Assembly (NCBI RefSeq): GCF_005876985.1
Contig: NZ_VAHD01000002.1
Location: 682,001-746,000, forward strand
Direction: 5' to 3'
DNA from: Rhodoferax bucti
Lineage (GTDB): Bacteria; Pseudomonadota; Gammaproteobacteria; Burkholderiales; Burkholderiaceae_C
DNA: 64,000 nt
Part shown: positions 7,708 to 61,712 of the stretch, piece after piece
How the letters are laid out: every line of letters starts with the position of its first letter
How positions within the stretch are numbered: position 1 is the first letter of the stretch
Translations under genes and position numbers: made by a program
Notes under the pieces: model-generated
Database searches by the model: none
What the model was told of the DNA's origin: nothing
What the model saw: only the letters and a program-made list of their open reading frames with translations

Positions 7708-8391
7708 ATGAAACAGATCGCGTTGGACATCGGCTTGTCCACCGGCCCCACGGTGGCCAATTTTTTTGCCGGCCCCAACGAAGCCGCCCTTAAGCACCTG
7801 GCGCTGTGGATTGGTGACAAAGGCCATGCCCAAAGCCGCTCCCCGGTGCCTACCTATTTCTGGGGGCCGGAAGGCAGTGGCAAAACCCATTTGCTCAAAG
7901 CCGCACGCGAAGGCCTGCGCGAGCAAGGCGCCCGCGTGGGCTGGTTGGGTGCCGCAGACGAGCCCACCGAGTTCGACGAAGCCTGGGCCGCCGTGGTGCT
8001 GGACGATGTGCACCTGTTCACCGCCGAACAGCAACACGCCGCATTCAACTGGTTTGTGAACGCCCAGACCCACCAAAAGCCGGTGCTGGCGGCAGGAGAA
8101 TTCGCTCCGGTGGAGCTCAAGCTGCGTGACGACTTGCGTACTCGCCTCGGCTGGGGCCATATTTTTGGCTTGCAGCTCCTGAGCGAGCCGGAGCGGCGCA
8201 GCGTGCTGCGCCAGGCTGCCGATGCGCGGGGCGTGTTTCTGGGCGATGAGGTGATGGACTTTATGCTCAACCGCTTCAGCCGCGACCTGGGCAGCCTCAT
8301 GGAGCTGCTCGACCTGATGGATGGCTACGCCTTGCAGACCCAGCGCGCCATCACCATCCCCCTTATCAAATCCATGCTGGAAAACACATGA
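7708..8391 (+). CDS. hda: DnaA regulatory inactivator Hda
   Basis: AAA+ protein that, together with the DNA-loaded sliding clamp, stimulates hydrolysis of DnaA-bound ATP and so limits re-initiation. 227 residues. A clamp-binding-like QIALDI lies at residues 3-8, Walker A GPEGSGKT at 53-60, and a Walker B-like VVLDDVHLF near residue 100. The ATG at 7708 is preferred to an in-frame TTG two codons upstream. Its last base pairs overlap the next start (ATGA at 8388-8391). Neighbours (purM, AI-2E transporter) match the conserved context of hda. Confidence 0.93.
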
Positions 8392-9074
8392 CCGTCACCA
8401 AGCTCGCCCTGTTCGATCTGGACCACACCCTGATTCCGCTGGACTCCGACTACGCCTGGGGCGAATTCACCACCGCACGCGGCTGGACCGATGCCGAACT
8501 CTTCAAGCAAAAAAACCAGGAGTTTTACGAGCACTACAAGGCCGGCACGCTGGACATCCACGCGTACATCCGTTTTGCCACCGCAGCCGTCATCCGCCAA
8601 GGCGCTACTAAATCGATAGCTGCTCACGCAGATTTCATGAGCGCTATCATCCAAAAAGCCATTCAACCCCAGGCCCTGAAGCTGGTGCAGGATCACCAGG
8701 CTGCGGGCGATACGGTCATCATCGTGACCGCTACCAACGCCTTTGTGACCCGCCCGATTGCCACGGCATTCGGTGTGGAGCACCTGATTGCGGTTGATTT
8801 GGTAACGGACGACGCCCCCGGCGGCACCGGCTGGTACACGGGTGAAATCGCCGGCGTGCCGTCTTTCCGCGAAGGCAAGGTCACCCGGGTGAACCAATGG
8901 CTCGCAGACCGGGGCCTGAGCTGGGAGACGGTGCACACCACCTTCTATTCAGACTCTATCAACGATGTGCCTTTGATGGAAAAAGCCGATGTGGCCGTGG
9001 CCACCAACCCCGACCCGCGCTTGCGCGCACTGGCCGAGCAGCGTGGATGGCGCATACTCGAGCTCTTCTCCTGA
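8388..9074 (+). CDS. HAD-IB family phosphatase (SerB-like)
   Basis: 228-residue HAD-superfamily phosphatase. Motif I is FDLDHTLI with nucleophile D10 and acid/base D12; motif II is the IVTATN strand; lysine K165-region VPSFREGK and motif [15 protein letters not shown] complete the active site. HAD-IB members include phosphoserine phosphatase and histidinol-phosphate phosphatase; the substrate cannot be fixed from sequence. It overlaps hda by four bases. Oddity: codons 73-87, in the cap region between motifs I and II, are a full copy of the window's 44-bp repeat (copy 1), read as [14 protein letters not shown]. The reading frame is intact. Confidence 0.88.
8604..8647 (+). repeat. 44-bp dispersed repeat, copy 1 (inside HAD phosphatase)
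   Basis: Forward copy of the family defined by GCTAY at positions 1-5, ATAGCTGCT at 13-21, CGCA at 24-27 and RGCGCTAG at 37-44. Here the blocks read GCTAC, ATAGCTGCT, CACGCA and AGCGCTAT with the exact family spacing. It lies in frame in the phosphatase gene and reads [14 protein letters not shown]. Confidence 0.88.
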
Positions 9075-13315: not shown

Positions 13316-13352
13316 GGTGTTGTTCCTGTGAGTTGATGAATAAAAAGAGGCT

Positions 13353-13396
13353 CTAGCGCTCGTATCACTTGCGCGAGCAGCTATGGATTTTGTAGC
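13353..13396 (-). repeat. 44-bp dispersed repeat, copy 2 (supplies stop codon of transglutaminase gene)
   Basis: Reads on the minus strand GCTAC, ATAGCTGCT, CGCGCA, AGCGCTAG at family spacing. Its first 16 bases are the last codons and the TAG stop of the transglutaminase gene (the TAG inside ATAGCTGCT); the rest is downstream sequence. Confidence 0.88.
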
Positions 13397-14403
13397 AAAC
13401 TGCCGCTGGACTGGCTTTGGCTTTGGCTTTGGCTTTGGCCTTGCGTCTGGCGCATGTCCGGCAGCGCGGGGGCTTGATTATCGGTAGGCAGCGGCGCAGG
13501 GGTCTCGAGGTCGTCACGGATTTCCTCTACCGTCACGCCCACCGACAGCGTATGGCGCGAGCCGCCATGAATCACTCCGCGCAAGGGGGAGACATCGCCA
13601 AAATCCCGCCCGGTGGCCACGGTCACGTAGTCCACGCCCGGTGCATGCCACCCCCAGCGGTTGTTGGTCGGGTCCAGGTCCACCCAGCGGGCGCCCTCGG
13701 GCAGGTCGGGCACATACACGCTGACCCAGGCGTGCGAGGCATCGCTGCCGATCAGCTTGGTCTGGCCGGGGGGCGGTTGGGTCAGCAGGTAGCCGCTCAC
13801 ATAACGCGCCGGCAGGCCCATGCTGCGCCAGCAGGCCAGCATGATGTGGGCAAAGTCCTGGCACACGCCCTTGCGCTGCTCCAGCGCTTGTAGCGCCGGG
13901 GTGTTGATCTGGGTGCTGTGGGTTTCGTAGGTGAAGTCGGTGTGGATGCGCTCCATCAGGTCGCGCGCCACGGTGAGCACATCGGCCCCCGCCACAAAGC
14001 TGGGGCGTGCGTAGCCGGCAAACTCCAGCTGGCGCGGTACAAAGGGGCTGGCAAACCCCATTTCGTTGGCCGGCTGGTAGGCCGCGCCGGCTTGGTAGCG
14101 CAGGCTGTCGCGCAGCTGCTCCCAGGGCTGGGCGCTCTCCGGCAGGGCGTGGGCCTGAGTGGAGAGCAGGCTGCGTGCCCGCACCTCCAGCACGCTGTGC
14201 GGCACCTGCAACGAGAAAAAGCAGCGGCGGTTGCCATACACATCACTGGCGCGGCGCTGCACCGGCTGGGGGCTGATGAGCAGGCTGTGGCTCAGCACCC
14301 GTTGGCCGGCGTGGGGCCGTGGTTCCAGGTAGGCCACATGCTGGGCCGTTTCAACGGCCGGCTGGTAGTCGTACCGGGTTTCGTGGGTGACTTGCAGCAG
14401 CAT
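13381..14403 (-). CDS. Transglutaminase-family cysteine protease-fold protein
   Basis: 340 residues. An N-terminal beta domain (about 1-85, MLLQVTHETRYDY) is followed by the transglutaminase core with the triad C181 (KGVCQDFAH), H224 (DASHAWV) and D242 (WVDLDPTNN). This is the COG1305-type partner of the circularly permuted ATP-grasp/alpha-E proteins, proposed to act in peptide or amide modification. The ATG at 14403 overlaps the stop of the upstream ATP-grasp/alpha-E gene (ATGA). The C-terminal tail is odd: it contains a (Gln-Ser)n run coded by a hexanucleotide repeat, and its final codons and stop come from 44-bp repeat copy 2, so the tail is probably not the ancestral one. Confidence 0.9.
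   Translation of the reverse strand: MLLQVTHETRYDYQPAVETAQHVAYLEPRPHAGQRVLSHSLLISPQPVQRRASDVYGNRRCFFSLQVPHSVLEVRARSLLSTQAHALPESAQPWEQLRDSLRYQAGAAYQPANEMGFASPFVPRQLEFAGYARPSFVAGADVLTVARDLMERIHTDFTYETHSTQINTPALQALEQRKGVCQDFAHIMLACWRSMGLPARYVSGYLLTQPPPGQTKLIGSDASHAWVSVYVPDLPEGARWVDLDPTNNRWGWHAPGVDYVTVATGRDFGDVSPLRGVIHGGSRHTLSVGVTVEEIRDDLETPAPLPTDNQAPALPDMRQTQGQSQSQSQSQSSGSLLQNP
13413..13442. repeat. Hexanucleotide microsatellite coding for Gln-Ser repeats
   Basis: Four perfect GGCTTT units followed by GGCCTT on the + strand; on the coding (-) strand these give alternating Gln and Ser codons near the C-terminus of the transglutaminase. Unit gain or loss would change length without a frameshift. 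Confidence 0.9.
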
Positions 14404-17021
14404 CAGGTGCCTACGCTTTGCTTGGTTTCGCCGGAGTGGGTGAAGTAGGTGGCGCTGATGCTCTCGGACACGGTGTACGCCGCGCTCTTGATCAATTGCA
14501 GCAGGGCGCGCAAGGCGGGCATGACCGGGCCGTCCGACGGGGTGTCGCACAAGCCGGCCAAGTCCCAGTCATCGGGGGCGGGCACCAACTGGCTCATGGC
14601 GCATGCGTCTTGGGTGGGGCTTTGGGCCAGCTTTGCCAGCCGCCCGCGCAGGGTGTGGGCCACCCAGGCCAGCGAGCGGGGGTTGTCGCGGTCCAGTACC
14701 AGCAGGTCAATCAGCGCGGCCACATCGCGGCTTTGCTGGTATTGGCCGTGGAAGGTGATGGTGCTGTCAAACAAGCCCAGCAGGGCTTCAAAGCCGCCGT
14801 CGGTGTCCACCGCGCCTGTGTCGAACGACAAATCCAGCGCGGCGGCCAAAAAGTTCAAGCGCTCCACATGCCGGCCGATGCTCAGCAGGCGCCAGCCATC
14901 GTCGCGGGTCATGCGGTCGGTCTGGGCGCCGGTGATGGCAGCCAGGTGGTCGCTCGCATCTTTGAGGATGCGCAGGGCCTGCTGCGGCGCGTAGTCGCCC
15001 TGGGCGGTGAGTTGCGCGCAGCGCTGGAAGATGTCTTCTTCCGCGCGCAGGATGATGTTCCAGTGCTCTTGCGACAGGCGTTCGCGCACCGTGGCGGCGG
15101 CCCCTTTGAGGGCTCGCATGTTGAAGCCCACGCTGGTAGCGCCCTCGGGCGAGGCGAGGTTGGCAATCAGCGAGCGCTCAAACACCCGGCGCGCCTGCAC
15201 CGCCGAGGGCACGCCCGGCAGCACCAGGGTGTTGAGTTGCGCCAGCTGGCTCAACCAGTCGAGCAGCGGGGGGCTGGACTGGTCTTCGCCTCCCAAGCAC
15301 TCCAGCGCCAGGCGCGCGAGGCGGATGGTGTTGTCCGCCCGCTCGGTGTAGCGGCCCAGCCAGTACAGGTTTTCGGCAGCCCGGCTGGTGACCAGGCGTT
15401 TGCGCTGGGCTAGCACGGCGGGGGTCAGGGTGGTGGGCAGCAGGCTGGTGGTATCGACCTCGCCCTGCGTGAGCGCCCAGACATCGGCACTGCTGCCGCC
15501 GCGCTGCATGGCAGCAATGTCAGCGCTGGCGCCCGCCACGCGGGCCAGGCCGCCGGGCAGTACCCGCCACTGAGGCTGGCCTTGGGCGTTGCGCCCGTCG
15601 GACACGGCAAACACCCGCAGCATGACCGAACGGGCCACCATGGCCGCGTCGGCCGCATCTGCCTGCCGGTGCCAGGTGGGCATTTGCGAGAGGGGAATGT
15701 AGGCCTGCACCGTGTGCTCTTCGCTTTGGCGCACGATGCGGCCGGCCAGCCGGTCCAGCGCGCTCTGGCTTAGGGTGTGGCCCAGCATGGCGTCAAAGCT
15801 GGGGTGGATGCTGGAGCCCGGGTAGGTGGGCTTGATGGTGCGCTCGGCCAGCAGGGGCAGGGCCTCTTCCATGGCGCTGCGCTCGCCGCACCACCATGTG
15901 GGCAGGGAGGGCAATGCCAAGGGCTCGCCCAGCAGCGATTGCGCAATGGCCGGCAAAAAGCCCAGCAGCGCGGGCGACTCCAAAAACGCCGAGCCCGGCG
16001 TGTTGGCCACCAGCACGTTGCCCGCGCGTATGGCTTGCAGCAGACCGGGCACGCCCAACGTGGAGTCGGGCCGCAGCTCCAGCGGGTCGAGGTACTGGTC
16101 GTCCACCCGCTTGAGCAGGCCGTGCACCGGCACCAGGCCGCGCAGGGTTTTGAGGAAGAGGCGCTCGTCGCGCACCAGCAGGTCGCTACCTTCCACCAGC
16201 GTCAAGCCGAGGTAGCGGGCCAGGTAGGCGTGCTCAAAATAGGTTTCGTTGTAGGGGCCGGGGGTGAGCAGGGCAATGTGGGCCTGCGCGCCAGCGGGGC
16301 TGGCGGTTTTGAGGCTGTCCATCAGGGCCCGGTAGGTGCTGGCCAGGCGCTGCACTTTGAGGGCTTGAAAGGCTTGCGGAAACTGCCGCGACACCGCCAG
16401 CCGGTTTTCCAGCAGGTAGCCCAAGCCACTGGGCGCCTGGCAACGTTGGCCCACTACCCACCAGTTGCCATCCGGTCCGCGGGCCAGGTCAAAAGCGGCC
16501 ACATGCAAATGCACGCCGCCGGCGGGTTGCACGCCCGCCATGGGCCGCAGGTAGCCGGGGTGGCCGTGCACCAGCGCAGGGGGTAACAAGCCGGAGGTCA
16601 GCAACTGCTGGGGGCCATAAATATCGGCCATCACGGCGTCCAGCAGGCGCACCCGCTGCTGCACGCCGGCTTCGATGTGCTGCCAGTCCGGCACATCCAC
16701 AATCAGGGGAAACAGGTCCAGGGACCAAGGGCGCTGCGGGCCCTCGGTATCGGCATACACGTTGTAGGTGACCCCGTTGTCGCGTATCTGGCGCTGCAGG
16801 CTGGCAAAGTGCTGGTCGAGCCCTGCGGCATCGCCCGCTTCCATATGGGCAAAGAATTGGGCCCAAGCGCCCGTCAAACGTGCGCCAGCAGCTCCTGAAT
16901 TAATAGCGCCGCGCAGCTCGTCAAAGTGTCCGGTGGCTGCCGCGCAGGCCTGCGCGATGCGGGGGGGCGCATCGGCGTCGGGGGAGGGCGGTTCCGGGTG
17001 AAGGTTTGGCGGCGTAGTCAC
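14403..17021 (-). CDS. Fused circularly permuted ATP-grasp / alpha-E protein
   Basis: 872 residues. About residues 75-490 are the circularly permuted ATP-grasp domain (DUF404/DUF407 type): NGVTYNVYAD, LLDAVMADIYGPQ, LGYLLENRLAVSR, LLTPGPYNETYFEHAYLARY, EGSDLLVRD and PDSTLGVPGLLQAIRAGNV. About 545-870 are the alpha-E (DUF403) helical domain, opening SRAAENLYWLGRYTERADN. The same two domains are separate genes at 25711-28199. Such proteins are predicted amide-bond-forming ligases working with a transglutaminase, here the next gene, overlapped by ATGA. The start is a GTG at 17021. Codons 39-53 are 44-bp repeat copy 3 (AINSGAAGARLTGA), in the variable N-terminal region. Confidence 0.88.
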   Translation of the reverse strand: MTTPPNLHPEPPSPDADAPPRIAQACAAATGHFDELRGAINSGAAGARLTGAWAQFFAHMEAGDAAGLDQHFASLQRQIRDNGVTYNVYADTEGPQRPWSLDLFPLIVDVPDWQHIEAGVQQRVRLLDAVMADIYGPQQLLTSGLLPPALVHGHPGYLRPMAGVQPAGGVHLHVAAFDLARGPDGNWWVVGQRCQAPSGLGYLLENRLAVSRQFPQAFQALKVQRLASTYRALMDSLKTASPAGAQAHIALLTPGPYNETYFEHAYLARYLGLTLVEGSDLLVRDERLFLKTLRGLVPVHGLLKRVDDQYLDPLELRPDSTLGVPGLLQAIRAGNVLVANTPGSAFLESPALLGFLPAIAQSLLGEPLALPSLPTWWCGERSAMEEALPLLAERTIKPTYPGSSIHPSFDAMLGHTLSQSALDRLAGRIVRQSEEHTVQAYIPLSQMPTWHRQADAADAAMVARSVMLRVFAVSDGRNAQGQPQWRVLPGGLARVAGASADIAAMQRGGSSADVWALTQGEVDTTSLLPTTLTPAVLAQRKRLVTSRAAENLYWLGRYTERADNTIRLARLALECLGGEDQSSPPLLDWLSQLAQLNTLVLPGVPSAVQARRVFERSLIANLASPEGATSVGFNMRALKGAAATVRERLSQEHWNIILRAEEDIFQRCAQLTAQGDYAPQQALRILKDASDHLAAITGAQTDRMTRDDGWRLLSIGRHVERLNFLAAALDLSFDTGAVDTDGGFEALLGLFDSTITFHGQYQQSRDVAALIDLLVLDRDNPRSLAWVAHTLRGRLAKLAQSPTQDACAMSQLVPAPDDWDLAGLCDTPSDGPVMPALRALLQLIKSAAYTVSESISATYFTHSGETKQSVGT
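16864..16907 (-). repeat. 44-bp dispersed repeat, copy 3 (inside fused ATP-grasp/alpha-E gene)
   Basis: Minus-strand copy with blocks GCTAT, GGAGCTGCT, GGCGCA and GGCGCTTG at family spacing. It is in frame with the host gene and reads A-I-N-S-G-A-A-G-A-R-L-T-G-A, the same frame as copies 1, 5 and 7. Confidence 0.85.
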
Positions 17022-23161: not shown

Positions 23162-25651
23162 ATGCACGCCACTGCCTCCCGCATTGCCATCTGGCCCCGC
23201 ACCGGCCTGGCGTTGGGCGGCGGGCTGCTGCTGGGCATGGCCTTGCAGCTACAGCAGGCGGGCTTGCTTTCAGCAGGAATTTATGCATTATTTGTGCTGC
23301 TAGCGCTCGTTCTGTATGCGCTAGTAGCTATCAAAAAGAGAGCAGATGCAGGAAGCCAGGTCACCGTGCTGCTGGCCGCTGCGGCATTCGCATGGGGCCT
23401 GACCGGCTTGCGGGCCTTGCTGTTTGTGAGCCAGGCACTGAACCCGGCCCTGGAGGGGCGCGACGTGCTGGTTACCGGCGTGGTGGTCGATATGCCCCAA
23501 GTCACGGAGGCCGGTTTGCGCCTGCGCTTGGCGACGGAGGCCGCGGAGCTGGATGGGCAAGCGGTGCAGGTGCCCGCGCTGCTGGATGTGGGCTGGTACA
23601 CCAGCGCCTACAACGCCCAAGCGCAAGTGCCGGAGCTGCAACGCCCGCCGCCGGACCTGCGCGCCGGCCAGCGCTGGCGTCTGTCACTGCGCCTGAAAGC
23701 GCCGCACGGCAGTGTGAATCCGCATGGTTTTGACTACGAGCTGTACCTGTGGGAGCAAGGCGTGCAGGCCACCGGCTATGTGCGCGCTACCGCCAGCGCA
23801 CCGCCACCGCAGATGCTGGGGCAAACCTGGGCGGCGCCCGTGGCCCTGGCCCGTCAGTGGGTGCGTGAGCGCATCCAGGCGCATGTGGCCGATGCCCGCT
23901 CCGCCGGCCTGCTGGCCGCGCTGGTGGTGGGCGACCAGCGCGCTATCGACCGCAACGACTGGGATGTGTTCCGCGCCACAGGGGTGAGCCATCTTGTGAG
24001 TATTTCTGGTACCCATATCACTATGTTTGCCTGGCTGGCGGTGGGCGTGGTGGGGTGGCTGTGGCGTGGCTCAGCCCGCTTGTGCGGTTGGTGGCCGGCG
24101 CCGCAGGCGGCGTTGATGTGTGGTGTGGCGCTGGCGTGGGCCTATGCCTTGTTTTCCGGCTGGGGCGTGCCGGCGCAGCGCACGTGCGTGATGCTGGCGA
24201 CTGTGGCGGTGCTGCGCTTGTCGGGCGCGCGCTGGCCGTGGCCCTGGGTGTGGTTGCTCACCGCCGTGGTGGTCTTGCTGTGGGACCCGTGGGCGATGCT
24301 GCAGGCGGGCTTCTGGCTCAGTTTTGTGGCGGTGGGGGTGCTATTTGCGACCAGCATTGCTATGGATTTGAGAGCTGCTCCCGCAGATGCTGCGCGCGCT
24401 AGCGCGGCAAAAGACTCTCAAGTTCGCCGTGTCTGCCGCTGGGGCGTGCTGACGGTGGTGCATCTGCTACGCGAGCAGTGGGTGGTCACGCTGGCGCTGG
24501 CACCGCTGGGGCTGTTGCTGTTCGGGCAGGTGTCGCTCATTGGGCTGGTGGCCAATGCATTGGCCATTCCGTGGGTCACGCTGGTCCTCACCCCCTTGGC
24601 CATGGCGGGCGTGGTGTGGCCCGAGTTGTGGACGGCGGCCAGCGGCGCGGTGGCTTTGTTGTATGCGGGGCTGGATGTGTTGGCCGCCTGGCCCTGGAGC
24701 AGTTGGAGTGCGCCCGTGCCGCCGCTGGCAATGGGCATGGCCGGGGTGCTGGGCGGCGTGTTGCTGGTGCTGCCCATGCCGTGGGCGGTGCGGAGTGCGG
24801 GTGTGCCCCTGCTATGGCTCGCCGTGCTGTGGCGCCCCGCATTGCCGGCACCAGGGGAGTTTGAGTTACTGGCCGCCGACATCGGCCAAGGCAATGCGGT
24901 GCTGGTGCAAACCGCGCACCACGCCTTGCTGTTTGACACCGGCCCGCGCTACAGCTTGGAGAGCGATGCCGGCAACCGCGTAATGCTGCCTTTGCTCAAA
25001 GCACTGGATGTGCGGCTGGACACCGTGGTGCTCAGCCACCGGGATATGGACCATGTGGGCGGCGCCGCAGCGGTGCTCATGCAGCAGCCGCAAGCGGCGT
25101 TGCTGAGCTCTCTGGAGCCGCAGCATGCCTTGCAGCAACTCCGCCATTCCGAGCGCTGCGAGGCCGGTCAACACTGGGCGTGGGATGGGGTGGAGTTCGA
25201 GGTGCTGCAGCCGCAGGCCGGCGCTTACGAGGGGCAGCCGGCACCCAAGCCCAACGCCTTGTCCTGCGTGCTGCGCATCAGCAATGGCCGCCAGACTGTA
25301 TTGCTGGCGGGCGACATCGAAGCGGCCCAGGAGCGGCAGATGCTGGCCGATCCGGCGACTGCCGCCAAGCTGCGCGCCGACGTGTTGCTGGTGCCGCACC
25401 ACGGCAGTAAAACATCCAGCACGCCCGAGTTCTTGCAGGCGGTGCAAGCGCAGCACGCGTTGGTGCAGGCGGGCTACCGCAACCGCTATGGTCATCCGGC
25501 CGCTGCGGTGCTGGAGCGCTACCAGGATTTACGCATCCATCTGGTGCCATCGCCCCGTTGTGGTGCAGCGCGCTGGCGCTCTGCAGAGCCCCAAAATGTG
25601 GCGTGTATGCGGGAAGACGAGCGGCATTATTGGCGCCACGATGTGCCATAG
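23162..25651 (+). CDS. comEC: DNA uptake channel ComEC/Rec2
   Basis: 829-residue inner-membrane protein that translocates single-stranded DNA during transformation. It has N-terminal membrane segments, a soluble OB-like DUF4131 region (about 65-215), the polytopic competence domain (about 225-540: DVFRATGVSHLVSISGTHITMF, shown in part), and a C-terminal metallo-beta-lactamase domain from about 570 with DIGQGNAVLVQ, LLFDTGP and SHRDMDHVGG. Length is normal. Oddity: two 44-bp repeat copies are embedded in frame, copy 4 (codons 47-61, LALVLYALVAIKKR, ending a membrane helix) and copy 5 (codons 400-414, AMDLRAAPADAARA, in a loop). No other competence gene is adjacent. Confidence 0.93.
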   Translation: MHATASRIAIWPRTGLALGGGLLLGMALQLQQAGLLSAGIYALFVLLALVLYALVAIKKRADAGSQVTVLLAAAAFAWGLTGLRALLFVSQALNPALEGRDVLVTGVVVDMPQVTEAGLRLRLATEAAELDGQAVQVPALLDVGWYTSAYNAQAQVPELQRPPPDLRAGQRWRLSLRLKAPHGSVNPHGFDYELYLWEQGVQATGYVRATASAPPPQMLGQTWAAPVALARQWVRERIQAHVADARSAGLLAALVVGDQRAIDRNDWDVFRATGVSHLVSISGTHITMFAWLAVGVVGWLWRGSARLCGWWPAPQAALMCGVALAWAYALFSGWGVPAQRTCVMLATVAVLRLSGARWPWPWVWLLTAVVVLLWDPWAMLQAGFWLSFVAVGVLFATSIAMDLRAAPADAARASAAKDSQVRRVCRWGVLTVVHLLREQWVVTLALAPLGLLLFGQVSLIGLVANALAIPWVTLVLTPLAMAGVVWPELWTAASGAVALLYAGLDVLAAWPWSSWSAPVPPLAMGMAGVLGGVLLVLPMPWAVRSAGVPLLWLAVLWRPALPAPGEFELLAADIGQGNAVLVQTAHHALLFDTGPRYSLESDAGNRVMLPLLKALDVRLDTVVLSHRDMDHVGGAAAVLMQQPQAALLSSLEPQHALQQLRHSERCEAGQHWAWDGVEFEVLQPQAGAYEGQPAPKPNALSCVLRISNGRQTVLLAGDIEAAQERQMLADPATAAKLRADVLLVPHHGSKTSSTPEFLQAVQAQHALVQAGYRNRYGHPAAAVLERYQDLRIHLVPSPRCGAARWRSAEPQNVACMREDERHYWRHDVP
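23300..23343 (-). repeat. 44-bp dispersed repeat, copy 4 (inside comEC)
   Basis: Minus-strand blocks GCTCT, ATAGCTACT, AGCGCA and AGCGCTAG at family spacing. Relative to comEC it is inverted, and is read L-A-L-V-L-Y-A-L-V-A-I-K-K-R. Confidence 0.82.
24359..24402 (+). repeat. 44-bp dispersed repeat, copy 5 (inside comEC)
   Basis: Forward blocks GCTAT, AGAGCTGCT, CCCGCA and CGCGCTAG at family spacing, 1.06 kb from copy 4 in the same gene and in the opposite orientation. Read A-M-D-L-R-A-A-P-A-D-A-A-R-A. Confidence 0.82.
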
Positions 25652-27242: not shown

Positions 27243-28199
27243 ATGTTGTCACGCACCGCTGACCACCTTTTCTGGATGTCCCGCTACACCGAGCGGGCCG
27301 AAAACACTGCGCGCATGCTGGATGTGAACTACCAGACATCGCTGCTCCCCCAATCCCATGCCGTGGCCCAGATGGGCTGGCAAGGCCTGCTGTCCATCAG
27401 TGAATTGCTGTACTCCTACAAAGAGCGGCATGGCGAAATTCAGGCCCGCGAAGTGATGGACTTCATGGTCAAGGACGAGAGCAATCCGTCTTCCATCATG
27501 TCCTGCCTGAGCGCCGCCCGCGAGAACGCCCGCGCGGTGCGCGGTGCCTTGACTACCGAGGTCTGGGAAACGCAAAACACCACCTGGCTCGAAGTCAAAC
27601 GCATGATCAAGAGCGGAGACTTTGAAAAAGATCCTTCGCAGTTTTTTGAGTGGGTAAAGTTCCGCTCCCACCTCTCCCGTGGGGTGACGGTGGGCACCAT
27701 GCTGATGGACGAGTCCTTGCACTTCATGCGCTTGGGCACTTTCCTGGAGCGGGCCGACAACACCGCACGTTTGGTGGATGTGAAGTTCCATGCTGTGCAG
27801 AGCGACTTTTTTGGCGTCGCGAGCGAGAAGGACCAAGAGTACGACTTCTACCACTGGAGCGCCATCTTGCGCAGCGTGTCGGCGTTTGAGATTTACCGCA
27901 AGGTGTACCGCGACGTCATCAAACCCGAGCGCGTGGCGGAGCTGCTGATCCTCAAGTCTGACATGCCGCGCTCTTTGCATGCCAGCTTGAATGAAGTGGT
28001 CAGTAATCTGGCTTTGGTGGCCAGCAACCCCGAGAGTGAAACCCTGCGCCGTGCCGGCAAGCTGCGCTCGGAGCTGCAATATGGTCGTATCGACGAAATT
28101 CTGGCGACCGGTCTGCATGCCTACTTGACCCAGTTCCTGGACCGGGTGAACGACCTGGGCATCCACATCAGCCGGGAGTTTCTGGTTCCGGTGAATTGA
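27243..28199 (+). CDS. Alpha-E domain protein (DUF403, COG2307)
   Basis: 318 residues, all-helical. It opens with the family signature MLSRTADHLFWMSRYTERAEN, then ARENARAVRGALTTEVWE, RGVTVGTMLMDESLHFMRLG, TFLERADNTARLVDVK and ILKSDMPRSLHASLNEV. The alpha-E domain always occurs beside or fused to the permuted ATP-grasp domain and is probably its obligate partner. RBS and spacing (18 bases after the ATP-grasp stop) indicate co-transcription. A GCGGC/GCCGC hairpin with a T-run ends the operon. Confidence 0.9.
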   Translation: MLSRTADHLFWMSRYTERAENTARMLDVNYQTSLLPQSHAVAQMGWQGLLSISELLYSYKERHGEIQAREVMDFMVKDESNPSSIMSCLSAARENARAVRGALTTEVWETQNTTWLEVKRMIKSGDFEKDPSQFFEWVKFRSHLSRGVTVGTMLMDESLHFMRLGTFLERADNTARLVDVKFHAVQSDFFGVASEKDQEYDFYHWSAILRSVSAFEIYRKVYRDVIKPERVAELLILKSDMPRSLHASLNEVVSNLALVASNPESETLRRAGKLRSELQYGRIDEILATGLHAYLTQFLDRVNDLGIHISREFLVPVN

Positions 28200-32674: not shown

Positions 32675-32749
32675 AAGGCATGCGCCGGCGTTTGCGGGCG
32701 GGTAAGGCCGCGGGCCGCAAGCGCAGTTGTGTGGCGCGAGCAATCAATT

Positions 32750-32793
32750 GCTATTGTTTTGATAGCTGCTGGCGCATATGGAACGAGCGCTAG
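32750..32793 (+). repeat. 44-bp dispersed repeat, copy 6 (intergenic, before rmuC)
   Basis: Forward blocks GCTAT, ATAGCTGCT, GGCGCA and AGCGCTAG at family spacing. It is one of the two intergenic members, in the 151-base gap between the dehydrogenase and rmuC, 32 bases upstream of the rmuC start. Confidence 0.88.
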
Positions 32794-32825
32794 CGGCTCA
32801 AATGATGCATAACTAAAAGGACACT

Positions 32826-38405: not shown

Positions 38406-39611
38406 TTATCGCCTTTTCTGCACGAAGCCGATCAGCGTGCTCACCAAGTCGGGCTGTGCCCGCAGGCGTGTGCGCCAACTGTGCACCTGCGCTTGCCACG
38501 GCGCCAAGGGCAGCGCTGCCCAGCCGGAGCCCCCGGGCAGGGTGGCGGCCCCCAGAGCGCTTGTCGGCAGGCCGTTCCAGGCGGCATGCAACTGGCGCAC
38601 GGTGTTGTTTGCTCCCATGCAGTCCAGAAAGGCAGCCAGTTTGTCGGCGTGGGCACCATCGTCTTGCGGGTAGATGTGCCAAATAAAAGGTTTGCCGGCC
38701 CACAGCGCACGCACCAGGGAGTCTTCCCCGCGCACCAGGTTCAGGTCGCAGGCGTGGAGCAGGGCGTCAAAGTCGGGGTGACTCAGCGCGGGTAGGTGAT
38801 GCAGCCGCAGGGCGTCAGGGCGCAGGTGGGGACCTGCCTGCTCTCGGGCGGTGGGCAGTGCCGCCTCGATGGCCTGGGCTGCCCGACCTGGTGTGACCAG
38901 CAGCAGGGTAGGGGTGTCCGCTTGCATCCAGGCCGCCAGCGCGTTTGCCAACGCTGCAGGCTCGTAGCAAAACAGGCTGACCAGGCGCTCTCCCGCCCAG
39001 GGCACATGGTGCGCAGCCAACCATTCGGCGCGGGTGGCGTCACTCATGTCGGGCTGCTGGGGCAGCGCCGGTTCGCGCAGCAGGCCTCCTGTGCCCGTGG
39101 TGAAGCCGGGGTAATAAAAATGCTTGGTCCATCCCTTGGCAGGCCCCTGCATGACCGGGGAGGGTAGTGCGTGGCAGCGCTCTACATAGCCTTCGGCAGA
39201 CAGGTATTCCAGATTTACCCACACAGGTGTTTGAGGGCTATTTATGCCTCCAGCGCCCGTGGTGTGTGCGCGAGCAGCTATGAATTCAGTAGCAATGTCA
39301 CACCCAAAGCCCTCGATCCACACATCTGCCGGGGGTAGGTGCTGCAAAAAATCGGTGTTGCTGGCTTGGTTCCAGTCCAGCACGGTCACACCTGGCCACT
39401 GCTTGTCCCGTGCGCCGGGGGCCATCCAGGCCAGCGCGCTGCTGTCGTCCACCCACAGCCGCACGGTGTGTCCGCGGTGCGCGAGGTCGGCACACAGGCG
39501 CCAGCACACACCGATGTCGCCAAAGTTATCGATGACCCGGCAAAAAACATCCCACAGCATCGGCGACTGGCTGACATTTGCGGGGCTGGAAGTGACTTCA
39601 GGAAAAGGCAT
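38406..39611 (-). CDS. earP: EF-P arginine rhamnosyltransferase EarP
   Basis: 401-residue inverting GT-B glycosyltransferase that moves rhamnose from dTDP-rhamnose to Arg32 of EF-P. Signatures: DVFCRVIDNFGDIGVCWRL with the catalytic aspartate of NFGD near residue 30, PVWVNLEYLSAEGYVE, FYYPGFTTGTGGLLRE and the nucleotide-binding LVRGEDSLVRALWAGKPFIWHIYPQ (in part). ATG 39611 fits the family; open frame upstream is antisense to uvrC. Codons 107-121 are 44-bp repeat copy 7 (ATEFIAARAHTTGA), in the loop just before PVWVNLEYL. The protein is slightly longer than the usual 370-390. Divergent from uvrC. Confidence 0.95.
   Translation of the reverse strand: MPFPEVTSSPANVSQSPMLWDVFCRVIDNFGDIGVCWRLCADLAHRGHTVRLWVDDSSALAWMAPGARDKQWPGVTVLDWNQASNTDFLQHLPPADVWIEGFGCDIATEFIAARAHTTGAGGINSPQTPVWVNLEYLSAEGYVERCHALPSPVMQGPAKGWTKHFYYPGFTTGTGGLLREPALPQQPDMSDATRAEWLAAHHVPWAGERLVSLFCYEPAALANALAAWMQADTPTLLLVTPGRAAQAIEAALPTAREQAGPHLRPDALRLHHLPALSHPDFDALLHACDLNLVRGEDSLVRALWAGKPFIWHIYPQDDGAHADKLAAFLDCMGANNTVRQLHAAWNGLPTSALGAATLPGGSGWAALPLAPWQAQVHSWRTRLRAQPDLVSTLIGFVQKRR
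39250..39293 (-). repeat. 44-bp dispersed repeat, copy 7 (inside earP)
   Basis: Minus-strand blocks GCTAC, ATAGCTGCT, CGCGCA and GGCGCTGG at family spacing. It is in the same orientation as earP and reads A-T-E-F-I-A-A-R-A-H-T-T-G-A. Confidence 0.85.
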
Positions 39612-48625: not shown

Positions 48626-49651
48626 ATGGCCTCGCCCCCCGCCTTCACCGACGATGACGACAACGTCCCCGGTGAAGGTGTGGAGCCGGTTTATACGTCA
48701 AATGGCTCTCTAGCGCCCGCCGAATATGCGCGAGCAGCTCCTGATTCCATAGCAAAAGACGCTGCGCACCCGGAGATTGATAGCCTTGCTGACGCCGAGC
48801 AGGGCCCCGACGCCTTGGCGGTCTACCTGCGTGGCGTGCGCCGTACGCCGCTATTCACCCCCGAAGAAGAGTTTGCCGTGGCGACCCGCGCCCGTGCGGG
48901 TGATTTTGCGGCCCGCCAGAGCATGATCGAGCACAACCTGCGCCTGGTGATCAGCATTGCCAAGGGCTACGCCGGTCGCGGGGTGCCGATTTCGGATTTG
49001 ATTGAAGAGGGCAACCTCGGGCTGATGCACGCTATCGACAAGTTTGAGCCCGAGCGGGGTTTCCGCTTTTCCACCTATGCCACCTGGTGGATACGCCAGT
49101 CGGTGGATCGCGCACTCATGTACCAGGGCCGTGCGGTGCGCCTGCCGGTGAATGTGGTGCGCGAGGTGCAGCAGGTGCTGCGCGCCCGCAAGCTGCTGGA
49201 GAACGATCCGGCCCTGCTGGCCCAGCGCCCGGAGGGCATCCGTGTCGAGGACATTGCCGCCTTGCTCGGCCGGGACACGGTAGACGTGACCGACCTGCTG
49301 GCCATGGCAGAGGCCCCCCGCTCACTGGATGCCCGCTCCGACCACTCCGGCGATGAACATTCGCTGGGCGACGGCCTGGCAGATACCGTGTCCGCCACCC
49401 CCGACCATGTGGCGCTGGAGCACGAGGTGGATGCCTTGTTGGAGGAGTGGATGGCCACCCTGAACGCCCGGGAGCAGGAGGTGCTGGAAGCCCGCTTCGG
49501 CCTGCATGATCGCGATCCGGAAACCCTGGAAACCCTGAGCGAGCGCCTCGGCCTGACCCGCGAACGGGTGCGCCAAATTCAGAACGAGGCGCTGTTCAAG
49601 CTCAAGCGCTACCTCGCCCGGCGCGGTATCAAGCGGGAGTTTCTGATCTGA
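48626..49651 (+). CDS. rpoS: Stationary-phase sigma factor RpoS
   Basis: 341 residues. Region 1.2 begins DALAVYLRGVRRTPLFTPEEE near residue 60; region 2 has EHNLRLVISIAKGYAGRG, DLIEEGNLGLMHAIDKFEPERG and FSTYATWWIRQSVDRAL; region 4 ends ETLSERLGLTRERVRQIQNEAL. The first 60 residues are acidic and poorly conserved, and codons 29-42 there are 44-bp repeat copy 8 (LAPAEYARAAPDSIA). Directly behind nlpD, where rpoS promoters usually lie inside nlpD. The ATG at 48626 is the likely start; an internal start after the repeat cannot be ruled out. Confidence 0.93.
   Translation: MASPPAFTDDDDNVPGEGVEPVYTSNGSLAPAEYARAAPDSIAKDAAHPEIDSLADAEQGPDALAVYLRGVRRTPLFTPEEEFAVATRARAGDFAARQSMIEHNLRLVISIAKGYAGRGVPISDLIEEGNLGLMHAIDKFEPERGFRFSTYATWWIRQSVDRALMYQGRAVRLPVNVVREVQQVLRARKLLENDPALLAQRPEGIRVEDIAALLGRDTVDVTDLLAMAEAPRSLDARSDHSGDEHSLGDGLADTVSATPDHVALEHEVDALLEEWMATLNAREQEVLEARFGLHDRDPETLETLSERLGLTRERVRQIQNEALFKLKRYLARRGIKREFLI
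48710..48753 (-). repeat. 44-bp dispersed repeat, copy 8 (inside rpoS)
   Basis: Minus-strand blocks GCTAT, GGAGCTGCT, CGCGCA and GGCGCTAG at family spacing. Inverted relative to rpoS, and read L-A-P-A-E-Y-A-R-A-A-P-D-S-I, the same frame as copies 4, 9 and 11. Confidence 0.86.
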
Positions 49652-49677: not shown

Positions 49678-51144
49678 ATGACAGACGTACACAACAACGA
49701 CATGGTTTCGCCCAAGCCGCTGCCTGAGGGCTGGCTGGCCGTCAAATCCCTCGATCTGGAAGCCCAGGGCGTGGCCCACCGCCCCGATGGCAAAGTGGTG
49801 TTCATTGAAGGTGCCTTGCCCTTTGAAGTGGTGAGCGCCCAAATGCACCGCAGCAAAGCCAGTTTTGAGAAAGGCACGCTCACCGAGATCCACACCGAAT
49901 CCTCCCAACGGGTGCAGCCGGCGTGCCCGCACTTCGGCTTGCATGAAGGCGCCTGTGGTGGCTGCAAGATGCAGCATTTGCACGTAGGCGCTCAGGTCGC
50001 CGTGAAGCAACGGGTGCTGGAAGACAACCTGCAGCACATCGGCAAAGTCAAGCCGGACAACGTGGTGCGCCCCATTGAAGGCCCGGCCTGGGGCTACCGC
50101 TACCGCTCGCGCCTGTCGGTGCGCTTTGTGCGTAAAAAGGGAGCGGTGCTGATCGGCTTTCACGAGCGCAAGAGCCGCTATGTGGCCGACATGAAGGTCT
50201 GCCCTGTGCTGGCGCCCCGCGTGAGTGCCATGCTGCTGCCGCTGCGCCAGTTGATTGAGTCCATGGACGCGGTGGAAACGATTCCCCAGCTCGAACTCGC
50301 CATGGGCGACATGGGCACCAGCCAGGACAGCCAGGCTGGCGTCATCGCCCTGGTGATGCGCCACATGGAGCCCTTGTCAGAGGCCGACAAGGGCCGCCTG
50401 CGCGAATTTGCGGCCACCCAGCCCGGCCTGCAATGGTGGCTGCAGCCCAAGGGGCCAGAGACCATTCACCGCTTGGATGAGCTGCCTGGCCATGAAACCG
50501 GCGACCTGGCCTACACCTTGCCGGACTACGGCATCACCATGCCTTTCCGCCCCACGGACTTCACGCAGGTGAATCCGCACATCAACCGCGTGCTGGTGTC
50601 CCGCGCGCTCGGGCTGCTGCAGGTGCAAAAGACCGAGCGGGTGATTGACTGGTTCTGCGGCCTTGGCAACTTCACCCTGCCGCTGGCCACCCAGGCGCGC
50701 GAAGTGCTGGGCGTGGAGGGGGCCGAGTCGCTGGTGGCCCGCTCGCGCGAAAACCTGGTATTCAATTCCAAGCAGAAAGAAGCTCTGGCGCCCGATACGC
50801 CTGCGCTGGCAGCTACTAAATTTGTAGCGCGCAACTTGTTTGAGATGACGCCCGAGTTGTTGATTGCCGATGGCAGCGCCGACAAATGGCTGATCGACCC
50901 GCCCCGCGAAGGCGCCTACGCCCTGGTGCAGGCCCTGGCCGCCTTGCACCAGCAGCCGGAGCTGCGCCAAGGCTGGACGCCGCCCAAGCGTATCGTTTAC
51001 GTGAGCTGCGCTCCTGCGACCTTGGCGCGCGATGCCGGTGTGCTGGTCAACGAAGCCGGCTACACCTGCACCAAGGCGGGGGTGGTGAATATGTTCCCCC
51101 ACACCGCGCATGTGGAGAGTATTGCGGTGTTCGAGCTGAACTAA
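49678..51144 (+). CDS. rlmD: 23S rRNA (uracil-1939 C5)-methyltransferase RlmD
   Basis: 488 residues. A TRAM-like N-terminal domain (about 10-75) is followed by a [4Fe-4S] cysteine cluster ([19 protein letters not shown], in part, near residues 82-98), a central domain, and a C-terminal SAM methyltransferase with [13 protein letters not shown] near residue 325, [10 protein letters not shown] near 405 and the catalytic Cys in [12 protein letters not shown] near 443. Codons 370-383 are 44-bp repeat copy 9 ([14 protein letters not shown]), within the methyltransferase domain between the GLGNF and DPPR motifs. Monocistronic, with a terminator just past the stop. Confidence 0.93.
50785..50828 (-). 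repeat. 44-bp dispersed repeat, copy 9 (inside rlmD)
   Basis: Minus-strand blocks GCTAC, GTAGCTGCC, AGCGCA and GGCGCCAG at family spacing; the most diverged full copy. Inverted relative to rlmD, read [14 protein letters not shown]. Confidence 0.78.
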
Positions 51145-52968: not shown

Positions 52969-52982
52969 GCCGCGTTCTCGCT

Positions 52983-53037
52983 GCTATCAAAAAAATAGCT
53001 GCTCCCGCACAGCGGATGTGCGCCAGCAGCTATTTTT
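52983..53037. repeat. 44-bp repeat, copy 10: palindromic double copy acting as hairpin
   Basis: A forward partial copy (GCTAT, ATAGCTGCT at exact family spacing, CCCGCA) faces an inverted partial copy (GCGCCAGCAGCTAT). The arms AAAAATAGCTGCT and AGCAGCTATTTTT pair perfectly and extend to a stem of about 20 bp with one mismatch around loop AGCGGAT. With T-runs on both sides it is probably the terminator for the GlcG-like gene (+) and hemP (-). Confidence 0.85.
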
Positions 53038-53052
53038 ATGCCCAACGCGGGC

Positions 53053-60655: not shown

Positions 60656-61712
60656 CAGCATCGGTGAAGCCCAGCGAAAAGTCGAACAGCTCGCTCCCCA
60701 GGTCGCTCACGTAGCGGTGCAAGCCCGCGAGGCTTTGCTGCGCACGCTGGAGGCTGGCCGTGTTCTCGGGCCGGGCCTGGTGGAGTGCCTGCACCATCGC
60801 GCGGGTCAGTACCTGCAAGCGCTCTGCCTCCCGGGGGTAACGCCGGCCCAGCAATAGGCTGTGCAGGGTGCCGGGCAAAGGGAGCGCGGCGTGGCAGGCA
60901 GACCCCGGTGCGCTGTCCAGCGGGCCGGTGAAAAATGCCTGCAAGGCACGCGCCTGTGCTTGCCAGGCAGCCCGCGTTTGGCCGCTGACGCCGCGGACCC
61001 ATATGGCGCTGTCTTTGCCACGGGTATTGGCTTTGAGCTTTTTCAGCCGCAACTGCTCCAGGCTGCCCACCGCCTGCCCAAACCAGTTGCCGTAGGCGGA
61101 CCAGGCGTCTGCCTCGTCCCATGTCGTTTGGTGGAGTGCGGTGTAAGCCTGCTCCAGGGTGCGGGCTTCCAGCAGCACCTGCTCGGCCAGCGCTACAGCC
61201 AGTGCAGGCTGGGGCGCGCTGCCATCGTTGCGAAACAGCAGCCACTCGAGCGCAGGCAGGCCTTTGGCACTGGCGCCAATGGTTTGCAGGGCTTGCGGGG
61301 AGTCAAAGCGGGTAGTGCCGGCGTCCAGCAGCACCTGAATTTGCGCCGGGCGCGTTGGCCAAAAATCCACGGTGCGCGCAGAGCGGCGCTCCAGCAAGGC
61401 GTCTACCGGCACGGCAGACAAGGTCTCCCAGGCCAACATGCTGTTCACCCAGGCGGCGCGGCAGTCCGCCCAGGGGCGGGTGCGCAGGTGCTCGTGCAGC
61501 GTGTGGCTGTGCTGTGCAAATGCGTTGGCGGCGGGCAACAGGCTGTGGCCCAGCAGGTCCAGCACCAATTCGGATGCGCGTATGTAGGGAGCTGGGGCGG
61601 CAGGTGTACCTTCACAGCCAGGGAGTGCTCCTTTTTTGATAGCTGCTCGCGCATATTCCATAGGCGCTAGGGCCATAAATGGCATCAAAAATGCGAGATC
61701 ACGTCGTTTCAC
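60645..61712 (-). CDS. Imelysin-family (M75-like) periplasmic iron protein, second copy
   Basis: 355 residues, with a hydrophobic N-terminal export signal (about 5-24) and an imelysin domain (ASELVLDLLGHSLLPAANAFAQ; GLPALEWLLFRND; LEQAYTALHQTTWDEADAWSAYGNWFG, in part). Imelysins are iron-regulated periplasmic proteins thought to bind or sense iron. The GxHxxE motif of the first imelysin is here GLPALE, with Pro in place of His. The GTG start at 61712 overlaps the di-heme gene stop (GTGA). Codons 15-28, inside the signal peptide region, are 44-bp repeat copy 11 (LAPMEYARAAIKKG). Confidence 0.87.
   Translation of the reverse strand: MKRRDLAFLMPFMALAPMEYARAAIKKGALPGCEGTPAAPAPYIRASELVLDLLGHSLLPAANAFAQHSHTLHEHLRTRPWADCRAAWVNSMLAWETLSAVPVDALLERRSARTVDFWPTRPAQIQVLLDAGTTRFDSPQALQTIGASAKGLPALEWLLFRNDGSAPQPALAVALAEQVLLEARTLEQAYTALHQTTWDEADAWSAYGNWFGQAVGSLEQLRLKKLKANTRGKDSAIWVRGVSGQTRAAWQAQARALQAFFTGPLDSAPGSACHAALPLPGTLHSLLLGRRYPREAERLQVLTRAMVQALHQARPENTASLQRAQQSLAGLHRYVSDLGSELFDFSLGFTDADGD
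61627..61670 (+). repeat. 44-bp dispersed repeat, copy 11 (inside imelysin signal region)
   Basis: Forward on the + strand: GCTCC, ATAGCTGCT, CGCGCA and GGCGCTAG at family spacing. Inverted relative to its host gene and read L-A-P-M-E-Y-A-R-A-A-I-K-K-G. Confidence 0.85.

What the first reader, a model, noticed from the sequence alone, without database searches (positions are those of the whole stretch)
48710..48753. Repeat copy inside the N-terminus of RpoS
The stationary-phase sigma factor carries LAPAEYARAAPDSI before region 1.2, coded by repeat copy 8. The N-terminal part of sigma factors affects promoter binding and turnover, so an inserted peptide could alter RpoS behaviour, or mark a spot with little constraint. 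The copy is also just downstream of where rpoS transcripts start translation, so the sequence could affect mRNA structure.
Basis: partly seen in the sequence, partly recalled or inferred. Interest (0 to 1): 0.6.

Follow-up and report, generated by a model that had tools for sequence, protein, structure and literature searches.

The report
Ancient REP-like repeat translated inside RpoS
A 66-base DNA element scattered over this Rhodoferax-like genome in about 500 places also sits inside the gene for the stress regulator RpoS, where it has been inherited for a long time; its core bases look protected by natural selection, and it is linked to a transposase-like gene that seems to have lost its cutting residue.

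Summary
In detail: RpoS residues 22-43 are encoded by a repeat copy, window 48689-48754, one of 11 in the window and about 510 places in the genome (control 2). In the order sample the element is abundant only in this family (Comamonadaceae). It is no recent insertion: 33 of 81 rpoS genes (window included) carry it before region 1.2, and 49 of 52 placed copies are at the same spot in a congener with flanks about 85% identical. There the core bases are 91% identical and the loops 70%, in intergenic DNA too, so the core is constrained as DNA. I found no sign of an effect on RpoS, mRNA folding or translation start. A copy lies at the 3' end of a single-copy REP-associated tyrosine transposase (RAYT) gene here and, clearly, in 9 of the 10 nearest relatives examined; its strength tracks genome copy number (rho 0.82). 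In this genome and five congeners the RAYT has Phe at the catalytic Tyr, yet dN/dS is 0.14-0.19. Best reading: REP-like sites whose RAYT may now only bind DNA. Binding is inferred, not shown.

The parts
48626..49651 (+). rpoS, 341 aa; region 1.2 at residues 62-95
48689..48754 (+). 66-bp repeat copy in rpoS, translated as VYTSNGSLAPAEYARAAPDSIA (residues 22-43), 75.2 bits
   Evidence: present at the orthologous site in G205 and in named relatives
8603..8668 (-). repeat copy, 58.4 bits, inside a predicted gene (8388-9074, +)
13332..13397 (+). repeat copy, 72.5 bits, overlapping the end of a predicted gene (13381-14403, -)
16843..16908 (+). repeat copy, 60.7 bits, touching the edge of a predicted gene (14403-16844, -)
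23279..23344 (+). repeat copy, 68.0 bits, inside predicted gene 23162-25651
24358..24423 (-). second repeat copy in predicted gene 23162-25651, 59.0 bits, antisense
32749..32814 (-). repeat copy, 76.0 bits, outside predicted genes
39229..39294 (+). repeat copy, 69.7 bits, antisense inside predicted gene 38406-39560
50764..50829 (+). repeat copy, 53.7 bits, in frame inside an rlmD-like gene (49678-51144; name recalled from its sequence, no family search run)
52982..53047 (-). repeat copy, 57.3 bits, outside predicted genes, with extended palindrome
61626..61691 (-). repeat copy, 70.4 bits, outside predicted genes; one of 3 copies not found at the orthologous place in G205

Best explanation
The RpoS peptide is the translation of one copy of a REP-like interspersed DNA element of Comamonadaceae. 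The element is associated with a single-copy REP-associated tyrosine transposase (RAYT) and was presumably spread by it long ago. The rpoS copy most simply entered the poorly constrained N-terminus in a common ancestor of many Rhodoferax, Curvibacter and Hylemonella lineages, in the sense frame that is free of stops (LAPVxxAxAAxxxIA), and has been inherited since, decaying in some lineages. Shown: copy number, positional conservation, core conserved above loops, position at the RAYT end, Tyr-to-Phe change in the RAYT. Inferred: that the core is kept because a protein binds it, and that the RAYT, probably no longer able to cut, is that protein.
For: 509 places against 2 in control; 197 copies and no shuffled hit. 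Copies are nearly independent of one another, median nearest-neighbour identity 0.727 against 0.697 column-shuffled, one close pair. 49 of 52 placed G000 copies are present at the orthologous site in G205, and 50 of 51 in reverse; core 0.911, loop 0.697, flanks 0.847. Intergenic pairs alone (18): core 0.926, loop 0.671. Core exceeds loop in 39 of 47 untied pairs, p 5.5e-6; orthologues, found by flanks only, average 52.5 bits where neutral change predicts 27.4 (15% change) or -2.6 (30%). In G000 and L269-L278 column 0 of a copy lies 13-17 nt after the first base of the RAYT stop codon: 44.0 bits in G000, 14.6-36.0 in nine, 1.4 in L274; the other 19 of 30 loci reach at most 2.5 bits near the gene end. 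RAYT-end score against genome density: rho 0.815, p 4e-8, 30 genomes, not corrected for kinship. The catalytic Tyr (Y115 of 4er8) aligns with AYIDLNP; it is Phe in 6 of 9 RAYTs L268-L276. dN/dS of five Phe-type pairs 0.14-0.19. The RAYT is found in 54 of 61 genomes of the genus sample and in 29 of 29 good-quality ones.
Against: No binding data. The GTAG tag of REPs is at the right end in 38 of 196 copies (120 have ATAG), and there are no close pairs as in REPINs, 0 neighbour pairs under 200 nt among 234 copies. Stem positions show no covariation, so a hairpin is not proven. L273-L275 and L294 of the RAYT clade keep Tyr, so loss is not uniform. G247 and G213 have canonical RAYTs and 488 and 396 places, so the Phe change is not needed for upkeep. 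G218 (293 places), G223 (203) and G207 (121) have many repeats with a poor RAYT-end match. The matrix was trained on G000, which favours relatives with the same variant. At gene 3' ends overlapping copies are mostly sense (29 against 11 antisense), which a pure DNA site would not need. Of five RAYTs scanned, the three altered ones fall below NCBIfam's RAYT cut-off.
Confidence: 0.68

Rival explanations
1. The element is a genome-wide binding site for another host protein, or a DNA-uptake signal of natural transformation, and the link to the RAYT is only its origin. Even spacing, preference for certain reading frames, and scarcity in acquired DNA are features of uptake sequences (recalled, not looked up).
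For: Copies are more evenly spaced than Poisson in G000 (variance/mean 0.42 in 75 windows of 20 kb, none of 5000 simulations as low); in 220 kb of G247 (0.44 at 10 kb, p 0.008; 0.46 at 20 kb, p 0.07; 0.73 at 5 kb, p 0.09); in G205 without six low-GC windows (0.52, p 0.04, exclusion made after seeing the counts). No copy in those 120 kb where 17.7 were expected. No lead/lag bias (108 against 119, 16 ambiguous).
Against: All of the 540 kb of G205 gives 1.20 and G256 1.08-1.60 (9 stretches). The element is 66 bp with about 20 fixed positions, long for an uptake signal, and one case shows a clean presence/absence gap of about 100 bp, which fits insertion better than growth by point mutation. Fixed place at RAYT ends.
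Confidence: 0.2
2. Plain old selfish DNA: inactive REP-like insertions that survive only because they are harmless, like Rickettsia palindromic elements in genes.
For: In-frame insertions at tolerant places such as rpoS and rlmD; intragenic copies spread evenly along genes; decay in several rpoS and rlmD lineages.
Against: Neutral relics would lose core and loop alike. Core 0.911 against loop 0.697, and orthologue scores 25-55 bits above neutral expectation. Few half-decayed copies: 7 peaks between 10 and 20 bits and 8 between 0 and 10 (control 0 and 1), beside 174 between 20 and 75 bits, in 1.264 Mb.
Confidence: 0.1
3. The insert was kept in RpoS because the peptide changes RpoS function or turnover.
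For: The peptide pattern AIDxVA persists even in rpoS copies whose DNA match is weak (L085, 4.3 bits; L077, 2.1 bits).
Against: Same element in many other predicted genes and between genes; relatives without it have RpoS with other N-termini of like length; in the 33 carriers two synonymous core positions (columns 27 and 39) are invariant and the eight core third positions average 0.720, against 0.625 for third positions of region 2 (carriers were chosen by score, which favours this).
Confidence: 0.05
4. The copy acts as an mRNA structure in the rpoS leader.
For: It begins 63 nt after the first base of the start codon.
Against: Repeat segment folds like shuffled sequence, z -0.01; inside predicted genes 42 copies are sense and 30 antisense; no pair covariation.
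Confidence: 0.02

Closest known systems
REP elements / REPINs with RAYT (TnpA-REP), e.g. E. coli REP with TnpAREP (PDB 4er8)
   Same: Short, high-copy, palindromic consensus core, tied to a single-copy Y1 transposase with a copy at the gene end; abundance tracks the RAYT-end copy.
   Different: 66 bp, solitary, no fixed GTAG tag, 72 of 196 inside genes, cores constrained at orthologous sites, and a transposase with natural Tyr-to-Phe.
[quoted passage not shown]
   Same: GGGGTCAG-type inverted repeats in both flanks, at most 2 mismatches, in L278, L280, L282 and L286, and in one flank of many other loci; protein longer than the RAYT model (231 against 146 positions). Compare PMC3733652 section 16, PMC6006769 section 20.
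   Different: Subclass not tested; no HTH domain found by Pfam at E 0.1 (5 proteins). PMC6006769 section 20 reports no REP-like sequences near subclass 2.1 genes; here a high-copy element lies at the gene end. Both papers call the catalytic Tyr conserved in their sets; here it is Phe, Ser or Ala in several.
Rickettsia palindromic elements (RPE)
   Same: Palindromic interspersed DNA inserted in frame in protein genes (PMC3733652 section 15).
   Different: Described in Rickettsia; no sequence comparison made here; the present family is linked to a RAYT and shared across genera of Comamonadaceae.
BRE, Beta-proteobacterial repeat element (PMC3110155 section 14)
   Same: Interspersed repeat of Betaproteobacteria, some copies inside coding sequences, also counted in Rhodoferax and Polaromonas.
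   Different: About 90 bp, 69% GC in Bordetella, at most 29 copies, 4 in R. ferrireducens; sequences not compared here (figure and supplement not seen).

Membership tests
REP/REPIN element | High copy number (over 100 per genome) | tested here: met
   509 places against 2 control
REP/REPIN element | Associated with a RAYT gene whose flank carries the repeat | tested here: met
   Copy over 5 bits at the RAYT 3' end in 10 of 30 loci, all among the 11 nearest (L268-L278; L274 fails); correlation with copy number
REP/REPIN element | GTAG or CGTC tag next to the palindrome | tested here: not met
   GTAG at the right end in 38 of 196, ATAG in 120; CGTC on either strand anywhere in 33 of 196
REP/REPIN element | Extragenic, often in close inverted pairs | tested here: not met
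   72 of 196 wholly inside predicted genes; 0 neighbour pairs under 200 nt of 234 copies
REP/REPIN element | Hairpin supported by pairing | tested here: inconclusive
   Stem partners are complementary in consensus but pair no more often than independent columns would
RAYT (NF047646 / PF01797) | Match to family model | tested here: inconclusive
   G000 protein 45.9 bits against cut-off 80 for NF047646 (its best and only hit), 30.1 against 23 for PF01797; canonical L277 and L278 reach 84.9 and 85.6 for NF047646
RAYT (NF047646 / PF01797) | HUH motif | tested here: met
   HFH in all of L268-L276
RAYT (NF047646 / PF01797) | Catalytic Tyr (Y115 of E. coli TnpAREP) | tested here: not met
   Phe in G000 and 5 of the 8 other RAYTs L269-L276; Tyr in L273-L275
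Rickettsia palindromic element type | In-frame insertion into protein genes at many loci | tested here: met
   72 of 196 inside predicted genes, 62 of these in the two favoured frames; rlmD length difference
DNA uptake sequence | Promotes uptake of DNA | not testable with these tools
   none

The most novel reading that the evidence does not exclude
In a Rhodoferax clade a RAYT has become a catalytically dead, sequence-specific chromosome-binding protein, and its several hundred former transposition substrates, about a third of them inside genes such as rpoS, are now selected, rather evenly spaced binding sites, that is, a domesticated transposon end turned into genome architecture.
Probability: 0.3. 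Interest if true: 0.85.

Novelty: new variant of a known kind. Interest (0 to 1): 0.6.

Why it matters
What RAYTs and REPs do for their hosts is an open question; PMC8049555 (passages read) says the function is unknown and models a benefit. Here copies at orthologous sites in two genomes show strong core constraint beside free loops, and a natural Tyr-to-Phe RAYT kept under purifying selection would separate DNA binding from mobility, so a host function becomes directly testable by ChIP-seq and deletion. It also explains the odd peptide in RpoS and like peptides in other proteins of the family.

Tried and rejected
Replication-strand polarity: a run of plus-strand hits on contig 1 in the capped listing suggested it, but sampled stretches show 108 leading and 119 lagging copies, 16 ambiguous. 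Wrong core spacing gave 67 hits against 14 control, i.e. background, and served as a check. RNA element: no Rfam family reaches its gathering score at a copy in the window (only two tRNAs), no stable fold, no covariation. Plasmids and phages: no match with the rpoS copy at E 1e-3. Recent mobility: one pair of copies over 0.9 identity among 197, none among 39, 25 and 62 copies of three relatives. Peptide-level selection as the only cause: intergenic copies show the same core constraint.

Literature: no paper on this family came up in the searches 'Comamonadaceae + interspersed repeat + palindromic' (0 papers), 'Rhodoferax + repetitive extragenic palindromic' (1 paper, BRE), 'RAYT + Rhodoferax', 'DNA uptake sequence + Comamonadaceae'. 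Searches listed general RPE, REP and RAYT papers, of which only the five named in the report were opened. PMC3733652 has no occurrence of Rhodoferax, Polaromonas, Acidovorax, Comamona-, Delftia or Burkholderiales in its main text. Only open-licence PubMed Central papers are held; the 2017 RAYT classification cited by others was not read.

Limits: own gene caller, not a curated annotation; copies for orthology chosen at over 20 bits in G000; the dN/dS value for L268-L269 (1.26) is implausible and was dropped, and dS of the pairs L268-L270 and L268-L271 is near saturation (1.4-1.9); L201 was left out of the RAYT alignment (no RAYT frame found). RpoS starts are first ATGs (or other starts) and look wrong for some loci (e.g. 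L065, L082, L094, L096, L112, L120, L134, L136, L139). Scores and counts for the correlation were copied by hand.

Full report
Observation. The rpoS ORF (48626-49651, +, 341 aa) contains a repeat copy in frame. A matrix built iteratively from copies of this genome defines a 66-bp element; in rpoS it is 48689-48754 and encodes residues 22-43, VYTSNGSLAPAEYARAAPDSIA. The window has 11 copies, and this is the eighth. The core pattern AGCGCYYG-N7-TGCGCNAGCAGCT has 509 places in the 3.67-Mb genome at up to 3 mismatches, against 2 for the reversed pattern. In 1.264 Mb of own sequence the matrix finds 197 copies over 16 bits and none over 8 bits in shuffled sequence.

Where the family lives. At up to 2 mismatches, the 80 family genomes examined (own included) hold from 1 to 494 matches; 117 genomes of other families in the order hold 0 to 11. 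Taxa outside the order were not searched. The family has no name in those calls; the named relatives are Rhodoferax, Curvibacter, Ramlibacter, Polaromonas and other Comamonadaceae. No match of the rpoS copy in the plasmid or phage collections. In G205 six 20-kb windows of low GC hold no copy where 17.7 are expected. With my own gene caller (coverage 0.867), 72 of 196 copies lie wholly inside genes, 60 overlap gene ends and 64 are intergenic. Inside genes 39 are sense in the rpoS frame, 23 antisense in one frame, and 10 in other frames, as expected if stop codons exclude the rest; at gene 3' ends 29 are sense and 11 antisense.

Age and rpoS. One search confirmed 286 relatives and kept the best 80. 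Among these and the window, 33 of 81 rpoS genes hold the element at over 20 bits before region 1.2; a pattern scan puts it 86 nt after the start in 16 of the 80 and 77-89 nt in five more. Others hold weaker remnants down to background. On a quick RpoS tree the carriers are spread over several deep groups, while Ramlibacter, Caenimonas and some Curvibacter lack it; 34 of 78 inner branches are weakly supported. This fits one old insertion with later decay; repeated insertion is not excluded. In rlmD (best 29 other family loci of 75 genomes with a match), 27 of 29 have a longer segment at the site of window copy 50764-50829, 14 of 29 have an element over 20 bits somewhere in the gene, and two (L346, L347) are 7 or more residues shorter there and have none.

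Not recently mobile. The 197 copies are almost as different from one another as if each column were shuffled (median nearest-neighbour identity 0.727 against 0.697), with one close pair. Samples of G205, G256 and G247 have no close pair. Of 234 own copies over 20 bits, 52 could be placed by their flanks in 540 kb of the congener G205: 49 are present there; in reverse 50 of 51. The one reverse absence is a clean gap of about 100 bp in the own genome at window 30423/30424. Of the three forward absences, one is a weak copy (21.7 bits) whose orthologue is similar sequence of the same length; the other two lie in poorly conserved stretches.

Selection on the core. In the 49 pairs the 21 core positions are 0.911 identical, 14 loop positions 0.697, the left part 0.730, and the flanks 0.847 by BLAST. 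In 18 intergenic pairs core is 0.926 and loop 0.671; within genes (24 pairs) third codon positions are 0.852 in the core, 0.748 in loops and 0.718 elsewhere in the element. Core exceeds loop in 39 pairs, the reverse holds in 8, and 2 are tied. Orthologues were found by flanks alone, yet they average 52.5 bits against 57.5 for own copies; random change of 15% would leave 27.4 and of 30% -2.6. So a DNA-level constraint acts on these positions. The conserved stems do not covary, which says neither yes nor no about hairpins.

Spacing. In G000 copies are more even than Poisson: variance/mean 0.42 in 75 windows of 20 kb, none of 5000 simulations as low; 0.36 without four low-GC windows. In 220 kb of G247 it is 0.73, 0.44 and 0.46 at 5, 10 and 20 kb (p 0.09, 0.008, 0.07). 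In G205 it is 1.20 at 20 kb over all 540 kb and 0.52 (p 0.04) after leaving out six low-GC windows, a choice made after seeing the counts. In G256 it is 1.08-1.60 (nine stretches). The evenness is firm in one genome, suggestive in two, and not seen in the fourth.

The RAYT link. A Y1 transposase domain protein (231 aa) is present once in G000 (C1:16112-16804, -). In 61 genomes of the genus sample 54 have it, and 29 of 29 of good quality. Column 0 of a copy lies 13-17 nt after the first base of its stop codon, so the 66 bp overlap the gene end by a few bases: 44.0 bits in G000, 14.6-36.0 in nine of the ten next loci and 1.4 in L274; the other 19 of the 30 loci examined (of 57 matches) have at most 2.5 bits near the gene end. 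The RAYT-end score and the genome-wide density of the element correlate (rho 0.815, p 4e-8, n 30); genomes over 5 bits have 65-139 places per Mb, the other 20 have 1-81 (Mann-Whitney p 2e-5). The genomes share ancestry, so these p-values overstate independence. In some relatives the gene is flanked on both sides by GGGGTCAG-type inverted repeats, as in the TIRYTs of PMC3733652.

A natural Tyr-to-Phe RAYT. Alignment to E. coli TnpAREP (4er8, E 3.5e-4, query L278) puts Y115 on the Tyr of AYIDLNP. PMC8266576 (passages read) reports that Y115F, Y130F and Y125F mutants of three TnpAREP gave no cleavage or transfer product. In G000, G227, G257, G205, G256 and G241 this residue is Phe; in G199, G218 and G228 of the same clade it is Tyr; in all nine the following Asn (metal-site residue in E. 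coli by PMC6006769, passage read) is His. HUH is kept. Five Phe-type pairs have dN/dS of 0.14-0.19, so these proteins are maintained. Separate lineages have Ser or Ala there (L208, L285, L288, L295). The clade of ten is firmly joined (100/100; it includes L294 with Tyr on a long branch), but the order of Tyr and Phe changes within it is not settled. NCBIfam's RAYT model is the best hit of the three altered proteins scanned, below its cut-off, and exceeds it for L277 and L278.

Reading. The peptide in RpoS is a by-product of an old insertion. What keeps the element's core is unknown; the best candidate is binding by the RAYT, the next an uptake or chromosome-organising role. The finding is more interesting for the family than for RpoS.

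Literature base. Seen: PMC3110155 (passages and section 14), PMC3733652 (abstract, outline, sections 15, 16), PMC8266576 and PMC8049555 (passages), PMC6006769 (passages and section 20). Features of uptake sequences and the name rlmD are recalled, not looked up.

Noticed in passing
L285, L288, L295 (G242, G216, G204) and L208 (G172): RAYT homologues with Ala or Ser at the catalytic Tyr position, apparently separate losses from the Phe clade.
   Followed up: partly
G205:C1 about 2820001-2940000: About 120 kb of low-GC DNA (0.45-0.54 in 10-kb windows) without a single repeat copy, perhaps an acquired island.
   Followed up: partly
window 50764-50829: Repeat copy in frame inside an rlmD-like gene, with the longer segment in 27 of 29 family loci; two family members lack it.
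   Followed up: yes
window 23279-23344 and 24358-24423: One predicted gene (23162-25651) carries two repeat copies in opposite orientation.
   Followed up: no
window 15328-15377 and 27258-27307: Inverted repeat of 50 nt, 80% complementary, unrelated to this family.
   Followed up: no
G015: Family genome with 494 places of the core pattern at up to 2 mismatches and 20 Y1 transposase matches, several with identical scores.
   Followed up: no
L132, L125 (Polaromonas and relative) rpoS: Weak possible remnant of the element in the RpoS N-terminus (14.8 and 8.2 bits), hinting at an older insertion.
   Followed up: no
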